A stretch of 64,000 nt of DNA, taken from the NCBI RefSeq assembly GCF_900114775.1, contig NZ_FOUE01000002.1:186001-250000 (forward strand), read 5' to 3'. The notes below the pieces were generated by a model. That model worked only from the letters and a program-made list of their open reading frames with translations, was not told the origin of the DNA and did not search any database. The stretch comes from Marinobacter zhejiangensis. GTDB lineage: Bacteria; Pseudomonadota; Gammaproteobacteria; Pseudomonadales; Oleiphilaceae. Shown here in pieces: positions 3,038-26,952 of this stretch. The position numbers and the translations under genes are program-made. How positions within the stretch are numbered: position 1 is the first letter of the stretch; every line of letters starts with the position of its first letter.

Positions 3038-3183
3038 TCAGGCCCACGGTGCCATAAAGGCGCTTTTATGTTTTGCTCGCTGTTTACAACAGAGGTTTGA
3101 AAATGCTCTGTATCTTTCTTGTCTCAGCCCAGAGCCGGAAGCGTTAATGCGAACAATAAACCTAGGTAGTGTGGGTTAATTTA

Positions 3184-3768
3184 ATGTGTGAAAGCATGAA
3201 GTACGTTATTTGGGTTATTGAAGACGACGACTCTGAAGCCTTATATACCGGGCCAGTGGCAAGCAGTGATGCGGATTACCTGGCAAAGGTCATTCCGTTG
3301 CTTGAACCGATTTCCAATGCTGAATATAGGTCTGGGTTGGCCGCCATATTGTCTACAGCGGCAAGATTTAGCTATATCTTGCTGGGGGATGACATCGTGT
3401 GGTGCATCGAATGGTCTCCGGGTTTCATCGTGGTGAAGTTTACGCCGGATGGCCAAATTCTTGGTGCTGCAATAAGAGCCCTGAACCCCTGTTTTGGTGG
3501 CCGCGAGGCAACAGATGAAGAACTGGACGCGTTCGATGAAGATAATAACCCGCACTATAATTTGATCTTTGACCCCTGGGATGCCCAGTTCGAAGAGGAT
3601 TATCGTGAATCGGGAAATTTCCAGCGCGCCAATGAAGAGGAGTTGGCGCGGTATCAGAGTGCGCTCAAGCCGGTAAGCGACTTGGAAGCACTTGACGAAG
3701 CCAGCTTTGAACAGTGCAAAGCCAATATCTGCGAATGGGCTGGAAAGGGTTTGGTGATATTGCCCTGA
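3184..3768 (+). CDS. hypothetical acidic protein in immunity cluster
   Basis: An acidic cytoplasmic protein of 194 residues from the ATG at 3184. An in-frame GTG at 3169 and an ATG at 3196 are alternative starts, and none has a strong ribosome site. I do not recognise the family. It has a beta-rich first half (YVIWVIEDDD, SYILLGDDIVWCIEW) and an Asp/Glu-rich second half. Position and composition fit an immunity or DNA-mimic-like role, but that is inference. Confidence 0.6.
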   Translation: MCESMKYVIWVIEDDDSEALYTGPVASSDADYLAKVIPLLEPISNAEYRSGLAAILSTAARFSYILLGDDIVWCIEWSPGFIVVKFTPDGQILGAAIRALNPCFGGREATDEELDAFDEDNNPHYNLIFDPWDAQFEEDYRESGNFQRANEEELARYQSALKPVSDLEALDEASFEQCKANICEWAGKGLVILP

Positions 3769-3769
3769 A

Positions 3770-4057
3770 TTGCAGGCTTTGCGTTACGTCATTCCAGACA
3801 GAATCGAAGAAGTTTCGAATGGGAAAATCAAAAGCGACGGATACGACTATCTTGACGATGGCGTGAACTCGATGGTGATCTTCATGCTGTCAGAATCCCC
3901 AAAAGAAGGCATTCAGACCGTCCTGGACGTCTTGTCCGAAGAAAAATTCTGCGATAACTGGGTGCTTGGAAACTCGGTCATTGACCTGAACGAAAAAGGA
4001 CAATACACAGTTGTCTATCCAAAAAGTTTCAAGGGTGGGTTTGAGGTTAAGGGCTAA
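3770..4057 (+). CDS. small hypothetical protein, TTG start, immunity cluster
   Basis: About 95 residues, opening only 1 nt after the stop of the preceding gene. No ATG or GTG start is available near the beginning. The first usable codon is TTG at 3770, with another at 3779, so translation may be coupled to the upstream gene, or the gene may have lost its own 5' end. The protein is soluble and acidic (DGYDYLDDGVNSMVIFML) with no motif I recognise. Likely part of the immunity-gene series; function unknown. Confidence 0.5.
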   Translation: MQALRYVIPDRIEEVSNGKIKSDGYDYLDDGVNSMVIFMLSESPKEGIQTVLDVLSEEKFCDNWVLGNSVIDLNEKGQYTVVYPKSFKGGFEVKG

Positions 4058-4210
4058 GGTAGGAGCCTGAGATAAATACAAAATTCCCTCAGGGCATTGC
4101 TGTTGGACTGGGGCAGGCAATACAGGGCAGGCTGGAAACTAAATTCACCGATCTCTCGGGCAATTAATTGTCAGTTGTGTTGCTTTTTAGCGTTATACAT
4201 AAGTCAGTGC

Positions 4211-4546
4211 ATGGAACTAGAGACAGTAATTAATCACATATTCTCCTACAACTTCCCTACGGATGAAGTGCTTGTTCGTTTCGCTAACGAACGGCATGGG
4301 TTTGGCGGTGACGATGGCTGTTATGGCGTAACCTACCCTTCTGATCTTGATGCTTACGAAAGAGAAGTCGAGCAGCAATTTATTCCAGAGGGTAGTGTGG
4401 AAATTTACTGCTCAGCATACACAGATAAGGACATCATTATCCCTGAAAAACAGTACCTTGCGGCGTTAAAAAAGTACCTGGAGTCAACTGGCCAGTATGA
4501 ATTGGCAGGTCGATTAAAAACGCCAGAGGCTGATCCTAGTTATTAG
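4211..4546 (+). CDS. small acidic protein, probable immunity protein
   Basis: The reading frame is open from 4097, but the first 38 codons are Cys-rich and lack coding character. I therefore choose the ATG at 4211, which begins MELETVINHIF, giving 111 residues. The protein is acidic and soluble, with a central beta-rich part (SVEIYCSAYTDKDIIIP) and a helical tail. I do not recognise the family. By size, charge and location it is probably another immunity protein. The roughly 150 nt before it look non-coding and may hold its promoter. Confidence 0.6.
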   Translation: MELETVINHIFSYNFPTDEVLVRFANERHGFGGDDGCYGVTYPSDLDAYEREVEQQFIPEGSVEIYCSAYTDKDIIIPEKQYLAALKKYLESTGQYELAGRLKTPEADPSY

Positions 4547-4589
4547 GAAGCCTGCAAGGCATTCGTGGGCACCAAACGGTAAAAAAATT

Positions 4590-5192
4590 ATGGATCTCAA
4601 TCATATAACCTACAAAGGACCTGACATCGATGATGAAGAGGTCCTGGCTTCGCTGCCAGATAATCTTGCGAACCTCCTTTCTCAGATAAATGGGTTCATT
4701 CAGTATCACGGTGGACTGCATATCTACGGCGCGTGCCGAGCTCCGCAATGGCACTCGATCAGGGAGGCATGGCACGGAGAAGCTGCGGCCCATAAGCACT
4801 ATGAGTCCATCAGGGCGTCGGACGTTCCTTTGGGTGAGGATTGTTTGGGTTTTCAGTTTTTCCTGCGGGATAAACAAGTCATCTTCCTGGATGGAGAAAC
4901 CGGGGACGTGGAGGAGCTCGGCCTGAGCTTAAGAGAGTTCTTTGCGTGGGTGGCAGATGATCCGGTGGATAGCTTGGGTATGCAGCCGCTTCACCAGTTC
5001 ATGGAGGAGGGGAATATTTGTGAGCCAGGAAAGCTGTTGGCAGAGTACCCGTTTTTTTGCACGAAAGAATCCGAGCAGGGAGTGTCTTTAAGTGCGGTAC
5101 CGTGTCTGGAGCGACGTCAATTTCTGGCCGATTTGCATAACCAGCTGAGTGGAGTTCAAGACGGTGGCAAGTTTGATGTCACACTGGTGTGA
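4590..5192 (+). CDS. SUKH/SMI1-like immunity protein
   Basis: A 200-residue soluble protein. The N-terminus (DIDDEEVLASLPDNLANLLSQINGF) followed by HGGLHIYG is a variant of the SUKH beginning, where the LP turn and the F-x-x-x-NG helix are preserved. The middle part (CLGFQFFLRDKQVIFLDGETGDVEEL) resembles the beta-hairpin in which SMI1-like proteins read out a ligand or partner, and LREFFAWV matches the closing helix. Likely an immunity protein. The assignment is weaker than for the three other SUKH genes because the core helix is short. Confidence 0.65.
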   Translation: MDLNHITYKGPDIDDEEVLASLPDNLANLLSQINGFIQYHGGLHIYGACRAPQWHSIREAWHGEAAAHKHYESIRASDVPLGEDCLGFQFFLRDKQVIFLDGETGDVEELGLSLREFFAWVADDPVDSLGMQPLHQFMEEGNICEPGKLLAEYPFFCTKESEQGVSLSAVPCLERRQFLADLHNQLSGVQDGGKFDVTLV

Positions 5193-5261
5193 CTGTTTCG
5201 CAAGCAACGGAATGTTTGGCCTATCGGCAAATTAATCTGACATGAGCAGTAAGGGATTCGA

Positions 5262-5783
5262 ATGGATTCAAAGGTAAGGGACGTATTTTCAGAGATCGAA
5301 GAGGTACTGATCCAGGCTATTCGTGATATTCCGGTGCCTCCAGAGACATTGTACGCGTGTGGTTTTTGGTTGTTTTACTGCGATTATTCCACCATCAGTC
5401 CGCCATGTTTTGGCTACAACTCAGAGTATGGAGAGGAGGATGAGCGGTGGGCGCCTCCCGAATGGGATGTGGAAGAAGAGGAGAATGTCTTTGAAGCTCT
5501 GGAGCCGGCCTATGAAAAGCTTATGGGTCTCATGGAAGGGCGGAGTAATGAAGCGTGGGCGCAGCTTGTTGAGTTTCAGTGGCGCTTCTACACTGATTTT
5601 TGCGCCAGGTTGAACGCCAGTATGAATAGCCCGAGCTCACCATTCGCGGGTTGGAGCAAAACGGACGATTTTGTGGTGGGGGTGTTCGAAGAGCGAGAAG
5701 GCGAAGAAATATACAACCGGTTAGCGATAGACAGCGTTGGGAGAGATAGCGCCGTGAAACTGTCCATTGTTGATCTCGGATAA
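5262..5783 (+). CDS. hypothetical protein, possibly DUF4303-like
   Basis: A 173-residue, Glu- and Trp-rich soluble protein. The segment ETLYACGFWLFYCDYSTI followed by FGYNSEYGEEDERW and PPEW recalls DUF4303-type proteins, which pair a beta-strand opening with a late R-W-x-P-x-E-W element and often sit in immunity loci. I give that link only as tentative. It is the last small soluble gene of the series, and about 160 nt without a gene follow. Confidence 0.6.
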   Translation: MDSKVRDVFSEIEEVLIQAIRDIPVPPETLYACGFWLFYCDYSTISPPCFGYNSEYGEEDERWAPPEWDVEEEENVFEALEPAYEKLMGLMEGRSNEAWAQLVEFQWRFYTDFCARLNASMNSPSSPFAGWSKTDDFVVGVFEEREGEEIYNRLAIDSVGRDSAVKLSIVDLG

Positions 5784-5942
5784 CAACACCGTTGAGCGGC
5801 TCGGTGTGATTTGCGCATTCAAGAAAGCGGATGATTTCTCGATCCGCGGGGTTGAACACGACTACTGAGCGTCGCCTGCCACGGGCCCGCATTCCCCAAC
5901 GATTTTCTCTGCCTTCTAAAGTTCTGTGAGTAAGGGTTTAAC

Positions 5943-6548
5943 GTGAGACTTAAGTTATTTCTGCTGCTGTTTGTATTTCTGGCTGCCTGTCAGTACCTGC
6001 CCTCAGCCCTTACCAAAGACGACGTCGACCAGTACATCGAAGCCTATAAAAAACTAGCTGAGATCTCACCTGAGTTGGAGGTTCTGAGAACCAAGAGTGG
6101 AAGCATCAGCGTGTTTACCTGCTCTGCCTGTAAAGCGAGGATGGAGACCTCGGTCGTCAGCGCGGGCTATAGGAGCCTTGAGTCGTTTATGGTGATGGAC
6201 CTCAGGATGTCCTACACCATGCGCTATGTGTTGTACCTGGAGTTGACCCAACTGGTGAGTGAGGCGGGAGAGGACATTCCCATAGAAAATGTCTGTTCGG
6301 TGCAGAACCGGAATAACCTCAGTGAAGCGGACCGGCAGACCTTCGACGACTACTGTGGAAAAGCGGTTCTGTACACTGGTTATATAGAACGAGTCAGCCG
6401 TTTTGTGAGTGATGTGGTGGAATACATCGTGTCCAAGGCTGACTTCGAGATTGTTGCTGAGAGCTTTGATGAGATTCACTCGGCAATCACCGATCCAAGG
6501 TTAATTTCAGACCTGAGTCGCTCGGGTGGAGGAGGTTGGGATGACTGA
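5943..6548 (+). CDS. small lipoprotein, function unknown
   Basis: A 201-residue protein starting at GTG 5943, with AAGGG upstream. A hydrophobic leader is followed by the lipobox LAAC (Cys16), so it should be lipidated and membrane-anchored facing the periplasm. The mature part is mostly helical and contains a C-x-x-C pair (TCSACKAR) and two further Cys, so a disulfide or metal site is possible. I do not recognise the family. Its stop overlaps the start of the sulfurtransferase gene by 8 nt, which suggests co-transcription. A periplasmic immunity lipoprotein would fit the neighbourhood, but this is speculation. Confidence 0.7.
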   Translation: MRLKLFLLLFVFLAACQYLPSALTKDDVDQYIEAYKKLAEISPELEVLRTKSGSISVFTCSACKARMETSVVSAGYRSLESFMVMDLRMSYTMRYVLYLELTQLVSEAGEDIPIENVCSVQNRNNLSEADRQTFDDYCGKAVLYTGYIERVSRFVSDVVEYIVSKADFEIVAESFDEIHSAITDPRLISDLSRSGGGGWDD

Positions 6549-14871: not shown

Positions 14872-15440
14872 TGTTGCGCTGGGCTTTCTCCGGCGCTCCT
14901 GCCCCCTTTATCGCGATAGATTCAACATCCTGGCCAGCGTGTTCTCAGATATGACTGGGTACAGTTGTCAATCCATAGAAAAGGTGAGGGCCCCGATATA
15001 GAGTTCTAGGGGGCTTCAAACGTGTGATCAGCCCCCTCTGGTTTAACTCTTTCCTGCTTAGTAATGTTAATCGCAGCAGAGGATGGTGGGTATGAAGAAG
15101 CGATTTTAGGGGATGGCTACAGGTGCATACGCAATCGGATTTTCCATGCCTCAGGACAAGCACGCTCTCTTAGGATGAGTACTGGACAGTCCTTACTGAT
15201 CCGCAAGAGGCAACTGAAAGCTTTATTGGATGGAGCCCCTGTAAGTAGAGACGGCTGTCCTGATTATTAGGAACGTGATTACTTGTGAAACAGAGTTTTT
15301 TTCCACCCTCAATTCTGTTAAAGATTAGCCTCAACATAAAAGTGAATCCGTTTCGCAACCTTGCGTTTCAGGCGGGTTGAACAAAGGACCCTCCTCTCCA
15401 GCAGTTTTCGGAGCGGTGCAGTTTCATCAAAGGACTGTAA
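14872..15440 (+). other. gene-poor junction between core operon and defence island
   Basis: About 570 nt without a gene I can support. A second hairpin, AGGGGGCT (15008-15015) with AGCCCCCT (15030-15037), lies in the middle. A 68-codon frame at 15064-15270 has no ribosome site and no recognisable motif, and is left out as a gene. Composition shifts toward AT along the stretch. The mza promoter must lie in the last 200 nt, but I see no consensus -35/-10 pair. No tRNA, integrase or clear attachment repeat marks the boundary. Confidence 0.4.
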
Positions 15441-16955
15441 ATGGATTTTGAGATTTCCCCTCCCAGCGCTGCGGCCATGCTCGAGTCGCTCAGAGCCTAT
15501 GGCTATTCGCTCAATTCTGCTATCGCAGATCTGATAGACAATTCCATCACGGCCAAGGCAAAAAATATCTGGATTACCCTTCGCTGGGCGGGTGAGGATT
15601 CTTGGATCATCATTCGGGATGACGGTACTGGAATGAGTGAAGAGCAGCTATCCAAAGCCATGGTTGCGGGCAGCCAGAGCCCCCTTGACCAACGAGAACA
15701 ACATGACCTTGGTCGTTTCGGCCTTGGCCTGAAAACCGCGTCTCTTTCACTTGCTCGTTCACTAACGGTTGGTTCGAGAACTAGAAACAGTTCGTTAGCG
15801 ATTAGAAGATGGGACCTTGACTACATAGCGGAACAACAAACAAACGAGTGGCGGCTGTTGAAAAGCGGTAGAACCAACTCCGGGGAAAAGCTGGCGGGTA
15901 TCGAGAATCAAGAATCCGGCACGGTAGTCCTTCTAGAAAACCTCGACAAGCTATGTGCCGGCACTGTTGCCAACAGCCCAGCACATAGAGATGAGTTCTA
16001 TCATCAGATTGACTCTTTACGCGATCATCTTGGCATGATCTTCCATCGTTTTCTGGCCACTTCTTCCAGATTGAATATCTACGTCAATGGTGAAACCGAG
16101 GCCCATCTCGTAAAGCCTTGGGACCCTTTCTTTTCAAAGCATAAAGCAACAGAACCCAAGCCAGTAACCAGAATCCCATTTGGTGAGACAGTAACGACCG
16201 TTCAGGGATTTATCCTCCCCCATAAAGACATGCTCACTCAGCAAGAATACGAGGAAGCAGGCGGTCCCCTTGGCTGGAATGCCCATCAAGGTTTTTACGT
16301 GTATCGAGGGGACCGGCTGCTGGTAAGCGGTTCTTGGCTGGGACTTAGGGAAGGCATTTCAAAGTGGCGTGCAGAAGAGCACTACAAGCTTGCGCGCATT
16401 CGGGTCGATATCACCAACGAAATGGACAGCGACTGGAAGATCGATGTCAAAAAGTCTCTAGCAACTCCCCCACAAAATGTAGCGCTTGCATTGGTCCGAT
16501 ACGCATCTCAGGTAAGAGCAGAGGCACGAGAAATTTTTGCGCACCGAGGCAAATACGGTAAGCGCACGCGCACTGAGAAAGTGGGCAAGGTATGGCTTGC
16601 GAAACAGATTCGGGGCCAGAACACTTATCGCCTTGATCGCGACCACCCGGTGATCAGAAGCTTTCTTGAACGGCTAGGTGGGCGGCGGAAAGAAGCAGAG
16701 GCGATTTTTAAACTGATAGAAGAAACCGTGCCGGTAGAACAGATTTGGCTTGATTCCGCAGAGTCACCGGAAATGCGCTCTTCTCCTTTCGGCTCGGCTT
16801 CAGACCAAGAAGTTATTGATGCTGCGCGTACCTTTCTTCAAATGTTGCAAGGTGACGTTTCAAGTCCATCGACGGATCTTATTGACGAAATCTGTGAACT
16901 TGAGTGTTTCGCAGACCACAAAGACATTATTTATGCTCACTTTGGAGCCGTATGA
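15441..16955 (+). CDS. GHKL (MutL/MORC-like) ATPase of an Mza-type defence system
   Basis: A 504-residue cytoplasmic protein with an N-terminal Bergerat-fold ATPase. Its motifs are the N box DLIDNS (30-35, metal-binding Asn34), the G1 box DDGTGM (60-65) and the G2 loop GRFGLGLKTAS (91-101). The rest lacks MutL mismatch-repair dimerisation or endonuclease motifs. Such MutL/MORC-type ATPases occur next to Z1, AIPR and methylase genes in prokaryotic restriction-like clusters and in the experimentally tested Mza anti-phage system. Here it is the first of four genes that overlap end to end. Its role is probably ATP-driven clamping or conformational signalling on DNA, which is inference. Base composition is AT-richer than the core genes before it. 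Confidence 0.9.
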   Translation: MDFEISPPSAAAMLESLRAYGYSLNSAIADLIDNSITAKAKNIWITLRWAGEDSWIIIRDDGTGMSEEQLSKAMVAGSQSPLDQREQHDLGRFGLGLKTASLSLARSLTVGSRTRNSSLAIRRWDLDYIAEQQTNEWRLLKSGRTNSGEKLAGIENQESGTVVLLENLDKLCAGTVANSPAHRDEFYHQIDSLRDHLGMIFHRFLATSSRLNIYVNGETEAHLVKPWDPFFSKHKATEPKPVTRIPFGETVTTVQGFILPHKDMLTQQEYEEAGGPLGWNAHQGFYVYRGDRLLVSGSWLGLREGISKWRAEEHYKLARIRVDITNEMDSDWKIDVKKSLATPPQNVALALVRYASQVRAEAREIFAHRGKYGKRTRTEKVGKVWLAKQIRGQNTYRLDRDHPVIRSFLERLGGRRKEAEAIFKLIEETVPVEQIWLDSAESPEMRSSPFGSASDQEVIDAARTFLQMLQGDVSSPSTDLIDEICELECFADHKDIIYAHFGAV

Positions 16956-19795
16956 ACATGGATAATCTCGACGAACTTAAGGCCTCTGTTTCCAGCAATA
17001 TACAGTTACTTAAGAAGAAAAATGGGGGCAAGCTTACCAAGGAATTGATTCATAGAGCCGTCGATGTGGCCTTGCAACTCTCAGATAGTGGCGACGACCC
17101 CGGAATCAGAGACAAGCTCATAGAAATTGCAGAGTTTAACAATAAAACTTGGATGGACTCTGCACACACCATGACCGCAGAAGACCGTAACTGGTCACCG
17201 TGGCTTATAAAAACGAAACCAGACATAGCATGGCGCTACTGGGATCGTTACGCAGACTTGCTGAGACGTGACGGTTGGCCCCCAAAAGTTATTGAAACAC
17301 TCGATGAGACAATCGATGAGACATTAGGACAGCTAACCGACCCGAACCAGAAGGGTAGATGGGATCGACGAGGTATGGTTGTCGGCTCTGTCCAGTCGGG
17401 CAAAACCGCGAATTATACGGGGCTCATCTGCAAAGCAGCTGATGCGGGCTATAAGGTCATTATAGTTCTGGCAGGGTTTCACAAGAATCTTCGCTCGCAG
17501 ACACAGATCCGTATCGAAGAAGGTTTTCTTGGCTATGACAAAAGTGAACCGGGTAATCGAAAACTGATTGGTGTCGGAAGGATTGCCTACGATCACAAGA
17601 CTCTCTCGCCAGATGCAGCAACTACTCGGGCCGATAATGGTGATTTCGTTGCGGCAGCGACAAAAAACTTCGCGAACAGCATAGATCGCCCTTTGGTCTT
17701 CGTAGTGAAGAAGAATAAATCGGTACTGGAGAATCTCATCAACTATCTGGAGGGCGAAGGAAGGGCTCAAAAAGGCATAACTGATGCGACTGAACAGGCT
17801 CCAATTTCGAAGATTCCCCTGCTACTGATTGACGACGAATCCGATCAAGGCTCAATCAATACCAACAAAACGAACCTCAAGGATGCTGGCCAAGATGGTG
17901 ATGAACCGCTTGATCCGGAAGTCGATCCTACTGTCATCAATGGTCTTATCAGGAAAATTCTCAACACTTTCGAGCAATCGGCCTACGTAGCTTACACGGC
18001 AACTCCATTTGCTAACATCATGATTCACAAGGATTCTGACTCGAAAAAGTTCGGAGAGGATCTATTTCCAAGAAGTTTTATTACGTGCATTCGCCCGCCA
18101 ACAAACTACGTCGGCCCTCAGAGGATGTTCGGCTACACCGATACTGAGACTGGACAGGAAACCAAGGGGTTGCCGCTCACCCGGGAAATCTCGGACTACG
18201 CGGACAGCGAGGAGCTGAACGAAAAAAATGGGTGGATGCCACCGAAACACAAAAGCAGCCATATCCCGCTCTATCAGGGAGAACCTAAAACTCCCCCGAG
18301 CCTCTATGAAGCAATCCTTTCGTACCTGCTCTCCTGTAGTGCCAGAGTTCTGAGAGGTCAGGGCCAGAAACACTCGTCTATGTTGGTTCACGTTACCCGT
18401 TTCACAGATGTTCAGAACAAGGTGACCAAGCAGGTCAAAGAAGTTTTGACCAGCGTTCGCCATTGCCTGGTTTATGGTGCCGACGATCCAAGCTTTTCTG
18501 CCTGGAAAGATATCAAGAGCATCTGGGAAAACGACTACGTCAAAACGACCAAGTCCATCGCTGAGGAACGGTGCCCGGTGCATGAGTGGTCCGAGATAGA
18601 GGAGGTCCTTCCAAAAGTTGTCCAGACTGTCGTCGTCAAGGAGATAAATGGAACCGCAGGAGATGTACTCGATTACGAAAGGCACCGCGAGAGCGGGCTA
18701 AATGTGATTGCAATTGGCGGTGACAAACTCTCAAGGGGGCTTACGCTTGAGGGGCTACTGGTAAGTTACTTCACACGGCCTAGCAAAACTTACGACACAC
18801 TTATGCAAATGGGCCGCTGGTTCGGCTACAGGGATGGTTTCGTAGACCTTACCCGACTTTTCGCGCCTAAAGAGCTTATCAACTGGTTCCGGCATATTTC
18901 AGACGCGGACACCGAGCTGAGAAACGATTTTGAAACAATGTGCGCCGTTGGTGCGACTCCGGAGAACTTCGGACATAGAGTCCGAACCCACCCCCTTCTG
19001 CAAGTCACCTCTCCGGTGAAAATGAGAGCTGGCCAGAAGGAAAAATGCAGTTACAGTGGCGACCTCATACAGACCATTGTCTTTGACGCGCAAAAGACTT
19101 CGCGAGAGCACAATCTCGCCACTGCAAAAAAATTGATTCACGAGGCAGACGAAAAAGGAAGGTTCGATTCTAACAGCCCCAACCATCGTCCAATCTGGCA
19201 TGGCATTCCGACGAGATCGATTCTCAATTTTCTTGAATCATACAAACCCGGTTCAGAGGGAAGTATCCGGAGAGTCGATACCAGCCTGCTGGCAAAATAC
19301 ATTAGCGCCCAGAATACAAAGGGTAACCTGTCGGACTGGACTATCTTGGTATCAGGCATTGTTCCAAAAGAACCAGAGTTGACTCTCGATCTGGGGCGCT
19401 TTTCAGTTGGCCTTCGCGACCGTGGCGACAAGGCAAATACAAAGGAATATTTCCGTCCCGGCGTCATTACTGATCCTATAGATGAAGACGTCATAGATAT
19501 CGGTGATGAGAATCGCGAGAGAGCGCTAGCTGAAAGACGAAAGATTGTGGAGCAGAAAAGTGGCCCTGAGGAGGCTGCAAAAGTCCAATCACCCGGGGGG
19601 CCACAATTGCGGAAGTACCGGCCGAGTACCAAAGGCTTACTGATCATATACCCCATTGACCCAAATGCACACAAGCTAAGCGATGTAGACGTTCCATTCA
19701 TTGGATTCGCAATTAGCTTCCCCGGGATTGATGGCGAAAACGACATCCCTGTTGAGTACATAGTGAACCCGGTCGGACAGCAAACCAATGGCTGA
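16952..19795 (+). CDS. Z1-domain SF2-helicase-like ATPase of an Mza-type defence system
   Basis: A 947-residue protein starting at ATG 16952, which overlaps the previous stop by 4 nt and has GGAG upstream. A longer in-frame start at 16904 lies inside the previous gene and is less likely. Helicase-type motifs are visible: Walker A GSVQSGKT (145-152), Walker B LLIDDESD (about 291-298), motif III YTATPFAN (about 348-355), then SRGLTLEG and the arginine-finger segment QMGRWFGYR (about 620). This combination is the Z1 domain, known from methylase-linked clusters with MutL-like ATPases. It probably couples ATP hydrolysis to DNA remodelling or translocation during phage defence. Confidence 0.92.
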   Translation: MNMDNLDELKASVSSNIQLLKKKNGGKLTKELIHRAVDVALQLSDSGDDPGIRDKLIEIAEFNNKTWMDSAHTMTAEDRNWSPWLIKTKPDIAWRYWDRYADLLRRDGWPPKVIETLDETIDETLGQLTDPNQKGRWDRRGMVVGSVQSGKTANYTGLICKAADAGYKVIIVLAGFHKNLRSQTQIRIEEGFLGYDKSEPGNRKLIGVGRIAYDHKTLSPDAATTRADNGDFVAAATKNFANSIDRPLVFVVKKNKSVLENLINYLEGEGRAQKGITDATEQAPISKIPLLLIDDESDQGSINTNKTNLKDAGQDGDEPLDPEVDPTVINGLIRKILNTFEQSAYVAYTATPFANIMIHKDSDSKKFGEDLFPRSFITCIRPPTNYVGPQRMFGYTDTETGQETKGLPLTREISDYADSEELNEKNGWMPPKHKSSHIPLYQGEPKTPPSLYEAILSYLLSCSARVLRGQGQKHSSMLVHVTRFTDVQNKVTKQVKEVLTSVRHCLVYGADDPSFSAWKDIKSIWENDYVKTTKSIAEERCPVHEWSEIEEVLPKVVQTVVVKEINGTAGDVLDYERHRESGLNVIAIGGDKLSRGLTLEGLLVSYFTRPSKTYDTLMQMGRWFGYRDGFVDLTRLFAPKELINWFRHISDADTELRNDFETMCAVGATPENFGHRVRTHPLLQVTSPVKMRAGQKEKCSYSGDLIQTIVFDAQKTSREHNLATAKKLIHEADEKGRFDSNSPNHRPIWHGIPTRSILNFLESYKPGSEGSIRRVDTSLLAKYISAQNTKGNLSDWTILVSGIVPKEPELTLDLGRFSVGLRDRGDKANTKEYFRPGVITDPIDEDVIDIGDENRERALAERRKIVEQKSGPEEAAKVQSPGGPQLRKYRPSTKGLLIIYPIDPNAHKLSDVDVPFIGFAISFPGIDGENDIPVEYIVNPVGQQTNG

Positions 19796-20798
19796 CGTTA
19801 TCGATCAAATCTTCGAAACTTGGGAAAGCCTGCTTGATGAGCCAGGAACAGGTTCTCAAAGTGCGAGATACCGAATCTCTGGTTCGCCCAGATTCGGTGC
19901 TTACCTCGCTATTCGTTTTGATGACAGGGCCCCGGTTCTCGAATTTGGACCGATTACTCCCGATCTCCTGAAGGATGCTCCCCTGCCGTCAATAAAGGGA
20001 GTTGATTCGGGTCTTTCGTATCACAGCCAGGAACTATTTCTATCGCTAACTCTGAAGCAGCCCGCCTCAATCGATATTTTTCTGACGTTGGCTGCCCGCC
20101 TCACCGATGAGCTATCAGGAGTGGATTACCCGATTACCGGGTACAACGTCATCAGAAAAGTCCTGATCGTCTGGAGAGCTTTCTTTTCTTCCGAGAAGAA
20201 AATCCTTTCAGGTTCCGAGCAAACAGGGCTGGCAGGGGAGCTTATCTTAGCAACCATGTTCATGGATAACGGCATTGAAGTAGCCGCTGTTATCCGAGCG
20301 TGGAAGGGCAGTGAGAGAAGCCATCATGACTTCCAGCTTCCTCTCGCTTCTGTCGAGGTAAAGGCCACTGTCGCACACAATATTGAAACTGTTTCCATCA
20401 GCAGCTTACGTCAACTCGATCCTACGGGGACCAAAAAGCTGTTCCTTGCTCAGGTGGCAATGGACTCTCATGATTATGGCGACCAGACCCTGCCTCGCCT
20501 GATAGAGAATATTCGCCAACGCCTCTCATCTTTTCCGGCTGATAGGCTCGAGTTCGAGGAGAAGCTCCTTGCGTCCGGCTACCGAGACAAAGATGAATCC
20601 CATTACGCTCAGCAATCCTTTCAAATAAGGAAAGTCCGTGCTTTTAGAGTCGATGAAAACTTTCCGAAGCTAACTCATGACTCAATCCCCGAAGGGATCG
20701 TTGAGGCCACTTACCAGATCAATCTGGGCACAGTGGCCCTGCAAGCCCTCACTTTCGATGACTTAATGCTAGCGGTATCGAGTAGCCAAAATGATTGA
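19788..20798 (+). CDS. PD-(D/E)XK motif protein (DUF4420-type)
   Basis: A 336-residue protein overlapping the Z1 stop by 8 nt. A nuclease-like core lies in the middle: GLAGELIL (about 147-154), then Asp181 in HHDF and Glu190-x-Lys192 in VEVKAT, a D-x8-E-x-K arrangement that matches the PD-(D/E)XK active site. Length and gene order match the DUF4420 component of the Mza system. It is the most likely DNA-cutting subunit. Whether it cuts phage or host DNA is not readable from sequence. Confidence 0.85.
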   Translation: MADVIDQIFETWESLLDEPGTGSQSARYRISGSPRFGAYLAIRFDDRAPVLEFGPITPDLLKDAPLPSIKGVDSGLSYHSQELFLSLTLKQPASIDIFLTLAARLTDELSGVDYPITGYNVIRKVLIVWRAFFSSEKKILSGSEQTGLAGELILATMFMDNGIEVAAVIRAWKGSERSHHDFQLPLASVEVKATVAHNIETVSISSLRQLDPTGTKKLFLAQVAMDSHDYGDQTLPRLIENIRQRLSSFPADRLEFEEKLLASGYRDKDESHYAQQSFQIRKVRAFRVDENFPKLTHDSIPEGIVEATYQINLGTVALQALTFDDLMLAVSSSQND

Positions 20799-22878
20799 CT
20801 CAAGCGTTCAGGAGTTCCGGTATCAGCTCCTCTCAGACATCTCTGACCCTGATAATGGCAATCTGTCTGAAGAATATCCCGTGGAGAGATTTACCGAATA
20901 TGTGACAGCAATGCTCTCCGAATCAGGCGCATCGTTCGATCTTTCCATTGGACACATAGAGCGACAGTTCGGCGCTGGCAGTGTTCGCTGTGATGCCTGG
21001 GGGGCTGACCTTTCGGAAGGAAGGCTGGATCTGGTGGTATCAGACTATTTCGGAGTTGATAACCCTGAAGCGATCAACAAATCCGACCTTGAATCCTCCT
21101 TGAAGCGTGCACTTCGGTTACTGGATTTCTGCAAAAAAACGCAACTGTCGGAAATTGAACCCTCTTCCAAGACATATGACTGCGTTTCGTTAATCAAGGA
21201 ATCCCTCGGATCGATCGGCCAGATCCGACTTCACTACGTGACTGACTCCGAGATTTCGCTCAGGGAAGAGCCGGAAATTGAGGGGCCTGCCGGTATCGAT
21301 CTTCAAATTCACAAGTGGGATATCGTCCGGCTAAGCAGGGCACAGGCATCGGATACGAATCAGGAACGCATAGAGATAGATCTGGTTGAACGCTTTGGCC
21401 GCGGCCTGCCCTGCCTATCCATGCCCGGAAACAGCGATGAGTACAGTGGCTATCTCGCAATTCTGCCCGGCGAGTGGCTGGCTGATCTCTACGAGGAATA
21501 TGCTGGAAGACTGATGGAGTTGAATGTTCGTTCGTTTCTCCAACAGAAAGGTAAGGTTAATAAGGGCATCAGAAACACTATTCTCAATGAGCCAAGCCGG
21601 TTTCTGGCATACAACAACGGCATTTCAGCAACGGTTGAGTCTCTCAATGTAGAGAAAAACGAATCGGGTCAGGAAGTCATAACCTCCATGCGCGGTCTTC
21701 AGATTGTAAATGGAGGTCAGACTGTGGCTTCCATCCATCGCGCGAAAAAGGCTGATAGGTGTCCCCACCTCGATCGGGTAGCAGTTCAGGCAAAAATCAC
21801 CAAGGTTAATCCCGAAAGTCTCGACGAGCTGGTTCCCCAGATCAGTCGATACTCGAATACCCAGAATAAGGTGAACGAGGCAGATTTCGCAGCGAATGAC
21901 AGCTTTCACGTTGAGATTGAACGCCTTTCCCAGACGGTCTGGGCTCCAGGCCAACAATTCAAATGGTTCTACGAGCGCGCTCGTGGCCAATACCAAGTTG
22001 CCAAAAGTCGAGCCTCAACCACACCTGCGAAACGGAGGCAGTTCGAATCCATCAATCCGTCTAATAGAAAGTTTGTCAAAACGGATCTTGCCAGATACCA
22101 GAATGCCTGGGCACAACTGCCATACATTGTGTCCAGGGGTGCACAAAAGAACTTCGTTCATTACATGTCCAAACTGAAGCAGGAAAGAAAGAACGAAATT
22201 CCAGATATCGATTTCTACAAGGATCTCATTGCCAAAACCATTATTTTCAAGAAAGCCGAATCGATTGCGCGTCAGCACGCTTTCTCCGCATATCGTGCAA
22301 ACGCCGTGGCCTACACGGTCGCCCTGCTATCCCATAAAACATACGGTCGGATTGTTCTGAAGGATATCTGGGACCGCCAGGAAGTAACCCCGTCAATCAA
22401 CAAAGTGCTTTATGACTGGATGCCGGATGTTCTGGAGCGGATCGTAGAAACGGCTGAAGGTAGGAACGTCACTGAATGGGCAAAGAACGAGCAGTGCTGG
22501 AAAGTCATCAAAGAAATGGAACTTGTTGTACCAGAGGAACTGGAGGTCGAACTCGCCGAGGGTGATCACCTGCCAACAGTCGGTGCGGACGCAAGAAAGG
22601 GCAAAGTCACAATGACCTCCGAGGATCGCAAAAATATTGCGGTTACCATGGGACTGGAGGCTGATACTTGGTGGAAGATCACAAAGTGGGGACAGGAAAA
22701 GGGCGAACTTTCCGATTTCCAATGCAGCCTTGCTACGACAATGGCTGGTTATGCCTTGGGGGGCTGGGTAAAGGTTCCATCGGTAAAGCAAGCCAAGCAT
22801 GCTGCAAAAATAGTCTTTGATCTTCAGGAGAGAGGAATTATCGATTCCATTGCAGAAGAAGAGACGTATACAGACTGA
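20791..22878 (+). CDS. AIPR-domain protein of an Mza-type defence system
   Basis: A 695-residue protein overlapping the preceding stop by 8 nt. The AIPR (abortive infection phage resistance) hallmarks are NKGIRNTI, FLAYNNGISATVE (starting about residue 271) and LQIVNGGQTVASI (about 303-315), followed by QISRYSNTQNKVNEADF. The domain is named after lactococcal abortive-infection proteins and recurs beside Z1 and GHKL genes. The C-terminal 150 residues are less conserved and may be the specificity or toxicity part. A perfect 14-bp stem-loop follows the gene, suggesting the four-gene transcript can end here. Confidence 0.9.
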   Translation: MIDSSVQEFRYQLLSDISDPDNGNLSEEYPVERFTEYVTAMLSESGASFDLSIGHIERQFGAGSVRCDAWGADLSEGRLDLVVSDYFGVDNPEAINKSDLESSLKRALRLLDFCKKTQLSEIEPSSKTYDCVSLIKESLGSIGQIRLHYVTDSEISLREEPEIEGPAGIDLQIHKWDIVRLSRAQASDTNQERIEIDLVERFGRGLPCLSMPGNSDEYSGYLAILPGEWLADLYEEYAGRLMELNVRSFLQQKGKVNKGIRNTILNEPSRFLAYNNGISATVESLNVEKNESGQEVITSMRGLQIVNGGQTVASIHRAKKADRCPHLDRVAVQAKITKVNPESLDELVPQISRYSNTQNKVNEADFAANDSFHVEIERLSQTVWAPGQQFKWFYERARGQYQVAKSRASTTPAKRRQFESINPSNRKFVKTDLARYQNAWAQLPYIVSRGAQKNFVHYMSKLKQERKNEIPDIDFYKDLIAKTIIFKKAESIARQHAFSAYRANAVAYTVALLSHKTYGRIVLKDIWDRQEVTPSINKVLYDWMPDVLERIVETAEGRNVTEWAKNEQCWKVIKEMELVVPEELEVELAEGDHLPTVGADARKGKVTMTSEDRKNIAVTMGLEADTWWKITKWGQEKGELSDFQCSLATTMAGYALGGWVKVPSVKQAKHAAKIVFDLQERGIIDSIAEEETYTD

Positions 22879-22897
22879 TCAAGGTCGATTAATTTCA

Positions 22898-22929
22898 GTT
22901 CCTTAGCGCTCAAAAGAGCGCTAAGGAAC
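22898..22929 (+). terminator. perfect 14-bp stem-loop between the AIPR gene and the glycosylase gene
   Basis: GTTCCTTAGCGCTC (22898-22911), loop AAAA, then its exact reverse complement (22916-22929). There is no downstream T-run. It may act as a Rho-assisted or symmetrical terminator, an RNA-processing site, or a protein-binding palindrome. It separates the four ATPase/AIPR genes from the methylase pair. Confidence 0.6.
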
Positions 22930-22956
22930 AACGGTTCGAAAAGTTGAATATGAATT

Positions 22957-23613
22957 ATGGCAATTTTGGGGAAGCCGGAGAAAGAACGACTGCTTGCCTG
23001 GTACCAAGATAATGGTCGCCACGAACTACCGTGGAGAAAGCTTCAAACACCGTGGGCTATATTTGTCGCTGAGAGCCTTCTGAGACGAACAAAAGCATCA
23101 ACTGTTGCTGGCATATACCCCTCCCTCATCGATGAGTTTCGCTGCCCCGAAGATGTCCTTGGCAAAAAAAATCTATGGCAACAGAAAACTAATGCCCTTG
23201 GCATCGCATCGAGAGCGAATCAGTTTTTTTCAGCTTGTGAGCAGCTAATTCAACAGCACCAAGGAGAGGTTCCCGGCAACTATAATGATCTGATTACTCT
23301 TCCGGGTGTGGGACACTACATAGCCAACGCTGTTATCTCTTTCGGCTACCATCGACCTGCCTACATCATTGATACCAATACCATACGCGTCGCTTCTAGA
23401 GTTACGGGGGAACAAATTACACAAGCAGAACACCGCTCAAAAAAAGCAAAACGTCTTCTTGAACACTGCTTTGGCGACCAGGATGGCCTCTCGCCCCACC
23501 TGAACTTCGCGCTGCTAGATCTGGCGTTTTCAATCTGCAAGCCCTCAAAACCAGACTGCAATGCCTGTCCTCTCTCGAACTGCTGTCAATACAGTGCAGC
23601 CCCTGGCTCATAG
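22957..23613 (+). CDS. HhH-GPD DNA glycosylase with [4Fe-4S], probable T:G mismatch (Mig-type) repair enzyme
   Basis: A 218-residue MutY/endonuclease III-family protein. The helix-hairpin-helix reads LPGVGHY (115-121) and the catalytic aspartate is Asp139 in IIDTNTIRV. The position occupied by the Schiff-base lysine in endonuclease III (Lys120) and by serine in MutY is Tyr121 here, 18 residues before the aspartate. That is exactly the arrangement of the thymine-DNA glycosylase Mig.MthI (Tyr126/Asp144). The iron-sulfur cysteines C194-x6-C201-x2-C204-x5-C210 are complete. The MutY C-terminal NUDIX-like domain is absent. Placed 66 nt before a 5-cytosine methylase gene, it probably removes T from T:G mismatches left by 5-methylcytosine deamination, the job Vsr does elsewhere. 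Confidence 0.9.
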   Translation: MAILGKPEKERLLAWYQDNGRHELPWRKLQTPWAIFVAESLLRRTKASTVAGIYPSLIDEFRCPEDVLGKKNLWQQKTNALGIASRANQFFSACEQLIQQHQGEVPGNYNDLITLPGVGHYIANAVISFGYHRPAYIIDTNTIRVASRVTGEQITQAEHRSKKAKRLLEHCFGDQDGLSPHLNFALLDLAFSICKPSKPDCNACPLSNCCQYSAAPGS

Positions 23614-23679
23614 ACCTGGCAATGCGAGGCAATCCTGGTATTCTATCCAGCCTTACCACACTATCGATCCGATCTTGAA

Positions 23680-25647
23680 ATGAGTCAACCTAGCGACAAA
23701 GTAAAAATCATTGATCTCTTTGCAGGCCCCGGCGGTTTGGGAGAGGGGTTCAGCAATTGCGACAATTCTCCTTTCGAAATTGCCATGTCAGTCGAGAAGG
23801 AAAAAAACGCTCACAAGACTCTGACGCTGAGGTCGTTCTATAGAAAGCTCAAAGATAAATTCCTATATGTCCGCTACGTGACATGCACCGACGAGTCTTC
23901 AAAGAGACTCGTCATGGACGAGATCGAAAAAACGGACGAGTGGCGGGCTGCATGCGAAGAAACTCTGCAAAGGCCTCATGCGCTAGGTAACAGTAAAGTT
24001 TTTGAGAAATGGAAAAACGGAGAAGTTCCGGACGAAAAAGACTTCGAGGAAGAGACTCCCGAGCAACGAGAGATAAACAGGAAGATTGATGAAGTTTGCC
24101 GATCAACCGGAGAAGATCGACGCTCAAACCTGAGAAGCTGTTCACCGTTAATTGTGATTGGTGGTCCACCCTGTCAAGCGTACTCGACAATAGGTCGCGC
24201 CAGGCGCGTGGGCATAGCAAATCATAACCAAGACCATGACGAACGCTTTTTTCTTTACAAAGAATACGCAGATGTCATTGACCGAGCGCGGCCCGACTTG
24301 TTCGTGATGGAAAATGTTTCGGGAATCGGTTCGGCAAAACTCGCTAACGGAGTCAGAATATTTCCGGAGATCATCAAGCGCTTGGAGTACCTCAAAGAAA
24401 ACCCAGATCCTGAAAAGGATCAGAAGCAGTACCACATATATTCGCTCGTCACTGATAAAGATAACTTCATTGGCTCAGAAGGAAATCCGTCAGACAAGGA
24501 TTTCGTTATCAATGCGGCTGACTTTGGCGTGCCCCAAGAGCGGAGGAGGGTCATTCTCCTCGGAATAAATGCGGAACATGACAAAGACGGATCACTTCCG
24601 TTAACTATGGAATCGAAGCTAGCCCCACGCGCACCCTCTATCTCGGAAACGATCGCTTCGTTGCCCAAGATCCGGAGTTCGATCAGCACTGCGAACCGAT
24701 CATCAGGCCCTGCCCAAATTACTGAAGACAGTCCATCTGACAGCGACCTCGAATGGCACAAAATCAGAAACCAGTGCCTCGATGAGATTCGTAGAATTGT
24801 GTCGGGAAGGGATGCCATCGAACGAGGTATTCGGGACATCATGGAGTGGGAGCGTAGAAGCCTCAGATTCGAAAAAGCGCGGCAAGTGAAGGCTACAAGA
24901 GACATATCCGAGCATGACCTTGTCCGGATTTTCCTCTCCAATGAGGAAGAGCACTTTATCGAGTGTCGGGAGGGCGAATACCGGCATATTTTATCAACAA
25001 TTTATCCGAAAATTGCCCGGCTCCTCGATGAACTGGAAACAGGGGAGCAGCTGAGTACCGGGTGTAATTTCTATTTGAACTCCCAATCAGCCAAAGCTTT
25101 GACCGGCAGTAATGAAGACTACGAGAAGCTTGAAAACTGGCTGGCCAACAAATACTTCTCCGGAGTGCTGAACCACCGGGCAAAACAGCATATGCCCAGT
25201 GATATGACCCGTTACATGTTCTCTGCACTGTGGACTGAAGCGCAAATGCTCATTGACGCTGAACGTTCATCGCACGTGAGTAGGCGTCAGACCTCCACTT
25301 CGCCGACGACAAAGTTTTTTCCTCCGAACTTGGCTTCTCAGCACAAAAGTTGGTACTCAAGGAACTTCCAAGATCGCTTCAGGTGCTATCCTCGACTTCA
25401 TCGAGCAAAGACTGTCACGTCCCATATGCATAAGGATGGCCATGCAAACATCCACTATGACCCCGCACAGATGAGATCACTGACAGTGAGAGAGGCTGCA
25501 CGAATACAAACGTTCCCTGACGATTATTATTTTGAGGGAGGGCAAAGTGCTCAGTACCTTCAAGTCGGGAATGCGGTGCCACCATTTCTGGCGAAGCAAA
25601 TAGCTGAGCACGTGCTTGAAGTAATGAAACTTAAAAAGATTCTCTGA
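23680..25647 (+). CDS. DNA (cytosine-5-)-methyltransferase
   Basis: A 655-residue C5 methylase. Motif I is DLFAGPGGLGEGF (12-24, S-adenosylmethionine binding). Motif IV is GGPPCQAYS with the nucleophilic cysteine at about 166, motif VI is MENVSG (about 210-215), and motif VIII is QERRRVILL (about 285-293). Motifs IX and X are VREAARIQTFPDDY and QVGNAVPPFLA near the C-terminus. An unusually long block (about 300-560) between VIII and IX should hold target recognition, and residues 50-150 form a charged insertion. It methylates host DNA at a sequence I cannot predict, presumably marking self for the adjacent Mza-type genes. No classical cognate restriction endonuclease is evident. Confidence 0.93.
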   Translation: MSQPSDKVKIIDLFAGPGGLGEGFSNCDNSPFEIAMSVEKEKNAHKTLTLRSFYRKLKDKFLYVRYVTCTDESSKRLVMDEIEKTDEWRAACEETLQRPHALGNSKVFEKWKNGEVPDEKDFEEETPEQREINRKIDEVCRSTGEDRRSNLRSCSPLIVIGGPPCQAYSTIGRARRVGIANHNQDHDERFFLYKEYADVIDRARPDLFVMENVSGIGSAKLANGVRIFPEIIKRLEYLKENPDPEKDQKQYHIYSLVTDKDNFIGSEGNPSDKDFVINAADFGVPQERRRVILLGINAEHDKDGSLPLTMESKLAPRAPSISETIASLPKIRSSISTANRSSGPAQITEDSPSDSDLEWHKIRNQCLDEIRRIVSGRDAIERGIRDIMEWERRSLRFEKARQVKATRDISEHDLVRIFLSNEEEHFIECREGEYRHILSTIYPKIARLLDELETGEQLSTGCNFYLNSQSAKALTGSNEDYEKLENWLANKYFSGVLNHRAKQHMPSDMTRYMFSALWTEAQMLIDAERSSHVSRRQTSTSPTTKFFPPNLASQHKSWYSRNFQDRFRCYPRLHRAKTVTSHMHKDGHANIHYDPAQMRSLTVREAARIQTFPDDYYFEGGQSAQYLQVGNAVPPFLAKQIAEHVLEVMKLKKIL

Positions 25648-25848: not shown

Positions 25849-26650
25849 TCACTGGTGCCGGAGCTTTTTCTTTATCTCCGGATATTCGAGCCCGTCTTTC
25901 TTCATATAGATGTGTACTGCTCTATGGCAGTTTGGGCACAGCAATGCAAAATCATTTTGGCTTAAAACGTAAGTAGAGGAGTATGCCGCGATAGGCACCT
26001 TATGGTGCGCTTCTATGTATTCGACGCCATACCGCCCGGAAAAGTTTAAATCGCAAATATCGCAAACCGAGGCCGAGTTGGCTTTGAGCGCCTTGACGGC
26101 TCCTCGGTCACGCTCAGCCATCAGGTGCATCACGTACTTTCTGCCGCCCTCTTGGTACAGAACCTCTTCCTGAGGCAGAGACCGCTCTGGCGCGAAGCCA
26201 GACCCGCGTTCTAGAACGACGAATTTAGTCTCGATTGCAGATACAAAAAAAAGTACCCTCGAAAACCCAGGAATTGCTGCTCTCTGTGAACAACAACACG
26301 GGATATTGGTACTGAGGCTGATTAATGAGTGCCGTATTTGCCTTTTCCGAGTAAGAAACTTCGCCGCCCCTAGCTTTAAAAGAGTAATGGTATGAAGCCT
26401 TGCCATCATCTGCCCACCCATCCTCTTCATATGACCCCGGCCGAGTCTTGATGATCACTCCGTGCCATGCTGGTGGTTCGCCAATCCAATTGATCCCCTG
26501 CTGCGGTGTGTTGTTTATTCTTACCTCTGCACCTCCCCAGAACTGAGAGTCAGCAACCTTGGAGTATTGAATTAGATCAAAGAGATTGCGCTTCGTGACG
26601 ACATCTCCCGAAGCGAGCAGAAATAGATCCTGTGGTTTTTTCAGCTCCAT
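25849..26650 (-). pseudogene. HNH endonuclease gene split by a frameshift at an A8/T8 tract
   Basis: Two overlapping frames make one protein if a single base is lost in the run of eight A (26245-26252, T8 on the coding strand). The upstream part starts at ATG 26650 with AAGGA 7 nt upstream, and runs through LFLLASGDVVTKRNLFDL to WVFEGTFF. The downstream part continues as FVSAIETKFVVLERG and ends in an HNH nuclease domain: CDIC, then HHKVPIAAYSS, then LLCPNCHRAVH, a zinc-containing McrA-like ββα-metal fold. As read, translation stops about 17 nt after the tract, giving a protein without nuclease. A sequencing slip, a true pseudogene, or slippage-controlled expression are all possible. It converges on the methylase gene. 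Confidence 0.75.
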
Positions 26651-26952
26651 GGGCACATCCTTTCCGGGAAGCCTTACAGATATTGGTAGCAGTCTATAGC
26701 ATGGCATAGAGTTGATGGCTACGTGATTGCTGGAAGAGACCTTTCTACTGCTGAAACCACAGGTGACCGATTTTGAATCTCACCGTAGTTTGGTAACTCT
26801 GGGTTTATGGCGGTCCTCAATGGGTATAAGTTTATTAAATTCAAAGAACTACCACTGACAGGCATCATGAGATTGGATATCAATCTCGACTTGGGCTGAC
26901 ACAGTCTCGTTTTTCAGTGCGTATTTATCTTGAGATTTTTTTTTGCAAACAA

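What the first reader, a model, noticed from the sequence alone, without database searches (positions are those of the whole stretch)
15441..25647. Mza-type defence island joined to a methylase and a repair glycosylase
GHKL ATPase, Z1 ATPase, PD-(D/E)XK and AIPR genes overlap end to end. They match the composition of the Mza system tested by Gao et al. (2020) and of the MutL/Z1/AIPR/methylase clusters described by Iyer, Abhiman and Aravind (2008). Two genes follow in the same direction: a glycosylase and a 5-cytosine methylase. The mechanism of Mza is not worked out, and the glycosylase link is the less usual part.
Basis: partly seen in the sequence, partly recalled or inferred. Interest (0 to 1): 0.8.

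Follow-up and report, generated by a model that had tools for sequence, protein, structure and literature searches.

The report
Mza-like defence operon with thymine glycosylase
A bacterial anti-virus gene cluster probably marks its own DNA with methyl groups, and seems to carry a repair enzyme that cleans up the mutations such marking causes, in the slot where most relatives carry a different, unrelated repair enzyme.

Summary
The six genes are real and co-directional. GHKL, Z1, DUF4420 and AIPR genes overlap by 4, 8 and 8 bases; a short HhH/Fe-S glycosylase and a C5 methylase follow. The core proteins match MzaB-E but far below curated cut-offs, and the sigma-like MzaA is absent: an Mza-like variant, not strict Mza. 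Core plus C5 methylase is already described (Iyer 2008; Miller 2022). In 86 counted relatives the methylase is missing only in 8 cut by a contig end; one partial locus without it was dropped.

The informative part is the glycosylase. It lacks MutY's tail and both adenine-specificity residues; its best solved relative is the Mig T:G glycosylase. In relatives its slot usually holds the unrelated T:G endonuclease Vsr: of 87 loci with an unfused methylase, 60 have Vsr, 12 a Mig-like gene, 15 neither, none both (consistent, but not significant once kinship is counted). The host has no Vsr and one C5 methylase.

Most likely it repairs deaminated 5-methylcytosine and is not an effector. Fourteen actinomycete loci fuse the methylase to a catalytically degenerate glycosylase fold. 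Restriction of unmethylated DNA is inferred; no activity was tested.

The parts
15441..16955 (+). GHKL (MutL/MORC-like) ATPase, MzaB-like, 504 aa
   Evidence: Pfam HATPase_c_3 5.3e-31; PADLOC MzaB 7.4e-124; NCBIfam MzaB 484 bits, cut-off 850; D30, N34, D60-G62-G64, G91, G94, G96 kept in at least 95% of 89 aligned sequences
16952..19795 (+). Z1-domain SF2-type ATPase, MzaC-like, 947 aa
   Evidence: Pfam Z1 1.9e-77; PADLOC MzaC 9.8e-214; GKT 150-152 and DDE 294-296 kept in at least 95% of 84 aligned sequences
19788..20798 (+). PD-(D/E)XK putative nuclease (DUF4420), MzaD-like, 336 aa
   Evidence: Pfam DUF4420 2.1e-60; PADLOC MzaD 3.2e-31; D181, E190 and K192 kept in at least 95% of 82 aligned sequences
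20791..22878 (+). AIPR-family protein, MzaE-like, 695 aa
   Evidence: Pfam AIPR 1.7e-97 and AIPR_N 1.1e-30; PADLOC MzaE 5.2e-107
22898..22929 (.). perfect 14-bp inverted repeat with AAAA loop between the core genes and the glycosylase; no T run after it
   Evidence: sequence; RNA fold of 22880-22956 -29 kcal/mol, z -6.8; the only place with up to 3 mismatches in the host genome
22957..23613 (+). Mig-like HhH/Fe-S DNA glycosylase, predicted T:G mismatch thymine glycosylase, 218 aa
   Evidence: best solved relative 1kea; Y121, D139 and four Fe-S Cys; A47 and F184 at the MutY V45/Q182 positions
23680..25647 (+). C5-cytosine DNA methyltransferase, 655 aa
   Evidence: Pfam DNA_methylase 3.4e-45; NCBIfam dcm 141 bits, cut-off 100.65; the only gene with a PF00145 match in the host genome

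Best explanation
A methylation-coupled Mza-like anti-phage system. Inferred: the C5 methylase marks the host DNA; the GHKL ATPase, Z1 motor, PD-(D/E)XK nuclease and AIPR protein act together against DNA that lacks the mark. Supported by sequence and context, not shown biochemically: the glycosylase is not an effector but the methylase's repair partner, a Mig-type thymine glycosylase that removes T from T:G mismatches left when 5-methylcytosine deaminates, so that base excision repair restores C:G. It is a non-homologous stand-in for the Vsr endonuclease that fills this slot in most related loci.
For: Glycosylase: closest solved relative is Mig (1kea, 1.9e-28; best MutY 5.1e-24). The MutY specificity residues V45/Q182 (A50/L187 in Mig, PMC2714593) are A47/F184 here; 22 of 22 Mig-like proteins, the window's included, have a small residue (20 A, 1 G, 1 S) and no Gln, while 5 of 5 full-length MutYs have V and Q; of 4 more MutYs opened later all 4 have V and 3 have Q. 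Tail after the Fe-S cluster is 8 residues, against 141-148 in the 5 MutYs. Partner: of 11 plasmid genes opened that are Mig-like by these residues, 10 have an annotated C5 methylase within about 2.1 kb. Slot: Vsr in 60 of 87 loci with an unfused methylase, Mig-like in 12, neither in 15, both in 0; Vsr identity was confirmed by Pfam and TIGR00632 for 60 of 60 scanned proteins. A locus with 74% Z1 identity to a Mig locus (L171 against L044) has Vsr 3' of AIPR, where that locus has Mig; the 6 other Z1 loci found in the genus all have Vsr. Host: no Vsr, one C5 methylase gene, separate MutY- and Nth-like genes. Methylase coupling: 78 of 86 counted loci, and the 8 without are all cut by a contig end within about 310 bases of the cluster. 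Core active-site motifs are conserved.
Against: No activity was tested. By phylogenetically independent pairs only 6 contrasts exist; Vsr goes the opposite way in a mean of 3.4, the same way in none and does not differ in 2.6; sign test median p 0.25, so exclusion is a consistent pattern, not a proven one. The glycosylase tree does not join P0005 to Mig.Mth with support. Tyr121 is not diagnostic: three of five full-length MutYs also have it. 15 of 87 loci have no repair gene in the stretch read, the closest relative (Oceanospirillum linum) among them, and its genome has no Vsr either, so the partner is not obligatory. Two of four checked Mig-bearing genomes have Vsr elsewhere. One Mig-like plasmid gene (Gloeothece) has no C5 methylase within 6 kb. 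One partial locus (L022: truncated Z1 and DUF4420 only) has no methylase and was not counted. That the core attacks unmethylated DNA is inference only.
Confidence: 0.72

Rival explanations
1. The glycosylase is a defence effector: it excises bases from invading DNA (as the unrelated PabI does) or acts on modified phage bases, and the nuclease finishes the job.
For: It is encoded within the co-directional defence cluster. A base-excising restriction enzyme, PabI, exists (PMC4081073, passages).
Against: The four core genes recur without it in most surveyed loci, usually with Vsr instead. Glycosylases of the same type sit beside C5 methylases on plasmids without this core being seen there.
Confidence: 0.1
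2. The core acts on methylated or otherwise modified DNA (type IV-like), and the methylase serves another purpose such as regulation.
For: The sequence specificity of the core is unknown; a close core (80-87% identical) sits with a methylase only 35% identical, so the core is not tied to one methylase sequence.
Against: The methylase is present in all 78 of 86 counted loci that are not cut by a contig end close to the cluster, and in the 16 of 18 later loci that are not cut (in L182 the match is weak and about 3.7 kb away). A core aimed at C5-methylated DNA beside a resident C5 methylase would risk self-damage (inference).
Confidence: 0.15
3. The glycosylase chiefly stabilises the methylase gene: loss of methylation makes the repair enzyme harmful, as reported for Caulobacter VsrA.
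For: PMC12907096 (passages) reports a DNA damage response that depends on VsrA when the methylase ScmA is lost; Mig-like genes often sit next to methylases.
Against: That effect was shown for a Vsr-like protein, not a glycosylase; nothing here tests it. It can also hold together with the repair role.
Confidence: 0.08
4. The glycosylase is a MutY-type adenine glycosylase or a chance passenger.
For: NCBIfam's best model is mutY, at 136 bits with a cut-off of 286.5.
Against: Both adenine-specificity residues are missing, there is no MutY C-terminal domain, five full-length MutYs form a 100/100 clade without it, the host has its own MutY-like gene, and the pairing with methylases recurs.
Confidence: 0.04

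Closest known systems
MzaABCDE (Gao et al. 2020; paper not held here, recalled; NCBIfam NF041931-NF041935, PADLOC MzaB-E)
   Same: Homologues of MzaB, C, D, E in the same order.
   Different: All four below the curated cut-offs; no MzaA; methylase and glycosylase present. A closer Mza relative in the survey (L016: 806 of 850, 1325 of 1500, 354 of 420, 945 of 1050 bits; upstream a sigma-like gene with 586 of 800 bits to MzaA, which scores as well to RpoD) also has a C5 methylase and Vsr.
MORC/paraMORC restriction-modification clusters (Iyer, Abhiman, Aravind 2008, PMC2292703; sections 4-6 read)
   Same: GHKL ATPase, SF2 helicase with a DThhQXuRhFG motif (the window's Z1 protein has DTLMQMGRWFG), RE-fold nuclease, AIPR, mostly cytosine methylases; Vsr often near.
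   Different: The word glycosylase does not occur in the main text.
Z1 / PD-(D/E)XK / cytosine methyltransferase systems type I and II (Miller et al. 2022, PMC9523054; section 11 read)
   Same: Core of Z1, PD-(D/E)XK protein and cytosine methyltransferase; type II adds AIPR and is associated with a MORC-like protein, with mzaA in only a few.
   Different: The word glycosylase does not occur in the main text; its sequences were not compared here.
Mig T:G glycosylase of plasmid pFV1 beside an R-M system (record NC_001336.1; structure 1kea)
   Same: HhH/Fe-S glycosylase of about 220 aa, Tyr and Asp kept, Ala at the MutY V45 position, near a C5 methylase.
   Different: 29% identity to P0005, Leu not Phe at the second position, and an NgoPII-family restriction enzyme in place of the Mza-like core.
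Vsr endonuclease (PF03852)
   Same: Predicted same job (T:G repair) and same slot in the locus.
   Different: Unrelated fold and chemistry (established knowledge); no Vsr found in the host genome.

Membership tests
MzaABCDE | Homologues of MzaB, C, D, E in order | tested here: met
   PADLOC E-values 9.8e-214 to 3.2e-31
MzaABCDE | Scores over NCBIfam's curated equivalog cut-offs | tested here: not met
   484/850, 815/1500, 160/420, 465/1050 bits
MzaABCDE | MzaA (sigma-70-like) gene beside MzaB | tested here: not met
   No ORF of 80 aa or more between 14819 and 15441; the 7 genome matches to the MzaA model, best 468 of 800 bits, all lie outside the window, and the model also rings in 10 of 14 control genomes, so it catches ordinary sigma factors
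MzaABCDE | Anti-phage activity | not testable with these tools
   needs plating
Z1/DUF4420/C5 methylase systems with GHKL and AIPR (Iyer 2008; Miller 2022 type II) | Z1, DUF4420, C5 methylase, AIPR and GHKL genes together | tested here: met
   recurrent in related loci. Sequence kinship to Miller's own proteins was not tested
Mig T:G glycosylase | HhH fold with catalytic Asp and Fe-S cysteines | tested here: met
   D139, C194, C201, C204, C210; sequence match to 1kea
Mig T:G glycosylase | A50/L187 in place of MutY V45/Q182 | tested here: inconclusive
   A47 as in Mig; F184, hydrophobic and not Gln, but not Leu
Mig T:G glycosylase | Groups with Mig.Mth in a tree | tested here: inconclusive
   No supported clade holds P0005 with it; the five full-length MutYs are a separate 100/100 clade
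Mig T:G glycosylase | T:G thymine excision | not testable with these tools
   needs enzyme assay
MutY adenine glycosylase | V45 and Q182 and a C-terminal domain | tested here: not met
   A47/F184; 8-residue tail
Vsr | PF03852 domain in locus or genome | tested here: not met
   0 matches at E 0.001 in the host genome

The most novel reading that the evidence does not exclude
The glycosylase fold is a working part of these defence systems and not only a repair helper: separate and with an intact active site in some loci, and fused to the methylase as a catalytically degenerate Fe-S domain in actinomycetes, where Vsr usually remains as the repair enzyme. There it would read DNA (mismatch, base flipping or methylation state) for the methylase or the Mza-like machinery, and P0005 could do both jobs.
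Probability: 0.15. Interest if true: 0.7.

Novelty: new variant of a known kind. Interest (0 to 1): 0.5.

Why it matters
It ties Mza-like systems, whose mechanism is open, to C5 methylation: the methylase is near-universal in the counted loci, and most loci carry one of two unrelated enzymes for the damage that 5-methylcytosine causes. That makes a direct test possible: does the core attack DNA that lacks the methylase's mark? It also gives an example of non-homologous replacement inside a defence system, and a methylase/pseudo-glycosylase fusion that I did not find described in the searches made.

Tried and rejected
A first glycosylase profile was iterated over all ORFs and drifted onto whole methylases; its counts were dropped and a profile without iteration was used. 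The drift exposed the methylase-glycosylase fusion, which was then checked on its own.

Tyr121 as a Mig marker was rejected: three full-length MutYs have it too. Placing P0005 by tree failed for lack of support.

An empty integration site was looked for in 12 congeneric regions downstream of mmsB: one region ended at a contig end just after mmsB, the mmsB ORF was not recovered by my ORF filter in that one and two others, several share one gene set downstream while others differ, and none showed a hit to the six genes or to the right-flank genes within the 9-10 kb read. No clean empty site was shown.

The structure search for the fused domain used the C-terminal part alone (model); the whole-protein model was not searched.

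Rows dropped before counts: L022 (truncated Z1 plus DUF4420, no GHKL, AIPR, methylase, Vsr or Mig by my profiles), which tells against a universal methylase; two extra Vsr hits in L052 and L072 left out of the check alignment; G655 and G1085 (partial Z1, not fetched) and the repeats of L054, L051 and L058. L097 was recounted as Vsr by eye, because a 67-aa Vsr-like ORF lay below my ORF length limit. Vsr calls in the 11 later loci rest on my own profile, not on Pfam. A methylase, Vsr or Mig counts as present if found anywhere in the stretch read (up to about 10 kb each side of Z1).

Plasmid glycosylases: of 30 listed hits (102 records in all) I first opened 10 that were not annotated mutY; one of these (H40) already showed a C5 methylase in the listing, so the choice was not blind. 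Nine hits in all were opened as comparison or check (one of them twice): eight are MutY-type by V45, one (H48, Gloeothece) is Mig-like and has no C5 methylase nearby. Eleven of the 30 listed were not opened. Residues of the four late MutY-type hits: V in 4 of 4, Q in 3 of 4.

Literature seen: PMC2292703 sections 4-6 and passages; PMC9523054 section 11 and passages; PMC2714593 abstract and passages; PMC12907096, PMC4081073, PMC8307549 and PMC5379612 passages only. Searches gave listings (74 showed 20 of 30, 111 showed 20 of 128). Not read: Gao 2020 (not held) and the original Mig papers (recalled).
Full report
What is there. Six + strand genes run from 15441 to 25647. GHKL ATPase, Z1 ATPase, DUF4420 (PD-(D/E)XK) and AIPR genes overlap by 4, 8 and 8 bases; after 78 bases comes a 218-aa HhH glycosylase and after another 66 bases a 655-aa C5 methylase. 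GC is about 0.49 inside and about 0.60 on both sides, in line with a foreign island. Pfam places five of the six proteins above its cut-offs.

Is it Mza? PADLOC names the four core proteins MzaB-E with strong E-values, but NCBIfam's curated cut-offs are missed by far in all four, and no sigma-factor-like MzaA gene lies in the locus. In the survey an ORF like the sigma-like one of L016 occurs in 26 of 86 loci. L016, which scores much closer to canonical Mza, also carries a C5 methylase and Vsr. So the window is Mza-like, and the methylase goes with the wider family. Iyer et al. 2008 (PMC2292703; sections 4-6 read) and Miller et al. 2022 (PMC9523054; section 11 read) already describe such clusters; Iyer mentions Vsr nearby, Miller known DNA repair endonucleases for its type I. 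Neither main text contains the word glycosylase. Listings of searches (74 and 111 cut at 20) showed no paper on a glycosylase in Mza-like loci or fused to a C5 methylase; the library lacks most subscription journals.

Survey. Six loci of the class (a seventh, L022, is partial and was dropped) and the best 80 of a genome-collection scan were annotated with profiles built here. Of 86: GHKL 83, DUF4420 84, AIPR 79, C5 methylase 78, Vsr 60, separate Mig-like glycosylase 4, and among the methylases 14 fused to a glycosylase-like domain. All 8 loci without a methylase are cut by a contig end within about 310 bases of the cluster; L022, truncated but not at a contig end, has none. Pfam Vsr and TIGR00632 match 60 of 60 Vsr proteins scanned. 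In the window's own genus 7 of 61 genomes, the window's included, have a Z1 match; the other 6 all have Vsr and a methylase and no Mig-like gene, though two of them lack GHKL and AIPR hits. In two further surveys (13 of 392 and 10 of 400 genomes with a match) 18 new loci were read: Mig-like 7, Vsr 5, neither 4, cut off 2, both 0.

The slot. Over all 87 loci with an unfused methylase, the window included: Vsr 60, Mig-like 12, neither 15, both 0. Ignoring kinship the exclusion has a chance of about 1e-7, but kinship matters: on the Z1 tree the Mig label needs 8 changes (at least 6 forced by supported branches), and over 6 independent contrasts Vsr differs in a mean of 3.4, always the opposite way; sign test median p 0.25. 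The pattern is consistent but not statistically proven. Telling pairs: L171 has Vsr 3' of AIPR, on the other strand, while its relative L044, at 74% Z1 identity, has Mig there. The window lies in a supported set of 38 loci, 35 of them with Vsr. Its nearest relatives are Oceanospirillum linum (core 80-87% identical, methylase only 35% identical and in the opposite direction, no repair gene seen) and Neptuniibacter (Vsr). The methylase and repair genes thus seem to be exchanged separately from the core. A perfect hairpin, single in the genome, lies at that joint in the window.

The glycosylase. Best solved relative is the Mig T:G glycosylase 1kea. MutY's specificity residues V45/Q182, which are A50/L187 in Mig (PMC2714593, abstract and passages), are A47/F184 here; 22 of 22 Mig-like proteins differ from MutY at both and 5 of 5 full-length MutYs keep both; of four further MutY-type hits all keep V and three keep Q. 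The catalytic Asp and the Fe-S cysteines are kept, and there is no MutY tail. The host has separate MutY- and Nth-like genes, no Vsr and no other C5 methylase. On plasmids, of 11 opened genes that are Mig-like by these residues, 10 lie within about 2.1 kb of an annotated C5 methylase, pFV1 mig among them; the eleventh, of Gloeothece, has none within 6 kb. The choice of these hits was not blind (see Tried and rejected). The tree does not settle the nearest kin of P0005. Of four Mig-bearing genomes of the first survey, two have Vsr elsewhere, so exclusion is local.

The fusion. Fourteen actinomycete loci carry a methylase with a C-terminal domain. In one search the match to the Mig-like profile ranges from E 2e-19 to 0.008; NCBIfam's mutY model matches 13 of 14 at E 0.01 or better. 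Its predicted fold (L067, mean pLDDT 83.7) matches 1kea best in the PDB (E 6e-7, TM 0.69), and the domain profile aligns with the Mig-like profile (98.5% probability). The four Fe-S cysteines are kept in 14 of 14; the catalytic Asp is missing in 14 of 14. Vsr is present in 12 of these 14 loci. In these surveys the 12 intact glycosylases share no locus with Vsr while the degenerate ones usually do, as expected if only the intact ones repair.

Mechanism. Shown by sequence: the gene set, the conserved active sites, the slot pattern. Inferred: the core restricts DNA lacking the host's methyl mark, by GHKL conformational cycling, Z1 translocation and PD-(D/E)XK cleavage, with AIPR of unknown role; the glycosylase repairs the T:G mismatches that the methylase's mark produces.

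Noticed in passing
L053, L059, L064, L066, L067, L070, L073, L074, L075, L086, L088, L089, L092, L101: C5 methylases of actinomycete Mza-like loci carry a C-terminal glycosylase-fold domain that keeps the Fe-S cysteines but has lost the catalytic Asp.
   Followed up: partly
window 22898-22929: Perfect 14-bp inverted repeat with AAAA loop exactly between AIPR and the glycosylase, single in the genome, with no T run after it.
   Followed up: partly
window 25849-26707, - strand: HNH endonuclease gene (PF01844; weak PADLOC type IV match) downstream of the methylase, split over two overlapping reading frames and apparently broken.
   Followed up: partly
window about 15024-15107: A stretch of about 75-85 bases left of the island matches five scattered places (81-83% identity) in a congeneric genome (G374), perhaps a mobile-element remnant.
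   Followed up: no
L194 5947-6630 (same gene as L163 1147-1830, Gloeothece plasmid): A short gene annotated as A/G-specific adenine glycosylase has the Mig-like residue pair (A/L) and no MutY tail; perhaps a misnamed thymine glycosylase, and one without a C5 methylase nearby.
   Followed up: partly
L044, L046, L170, L172, L175, L176, L183: In these Mig-like glycosylases the second Fe-S cysteine aligns with His.
   Followed up: no
L064, L067, L086, L089: A second GHKL-type ORF of 434-436 aa lies beside the fused methylase, on the side away from the core genes.
   Followed up: no
L097 16171-16374: A short (67 aa) Vsr-like ORF, seemingly truncated, 3' of AIPR (judged by eye).
   Followed up: no
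window 1-6000: Another low-GC stretch (0.44-0.49) at the left end of the window, with few long ORFs.
   Followed up: no
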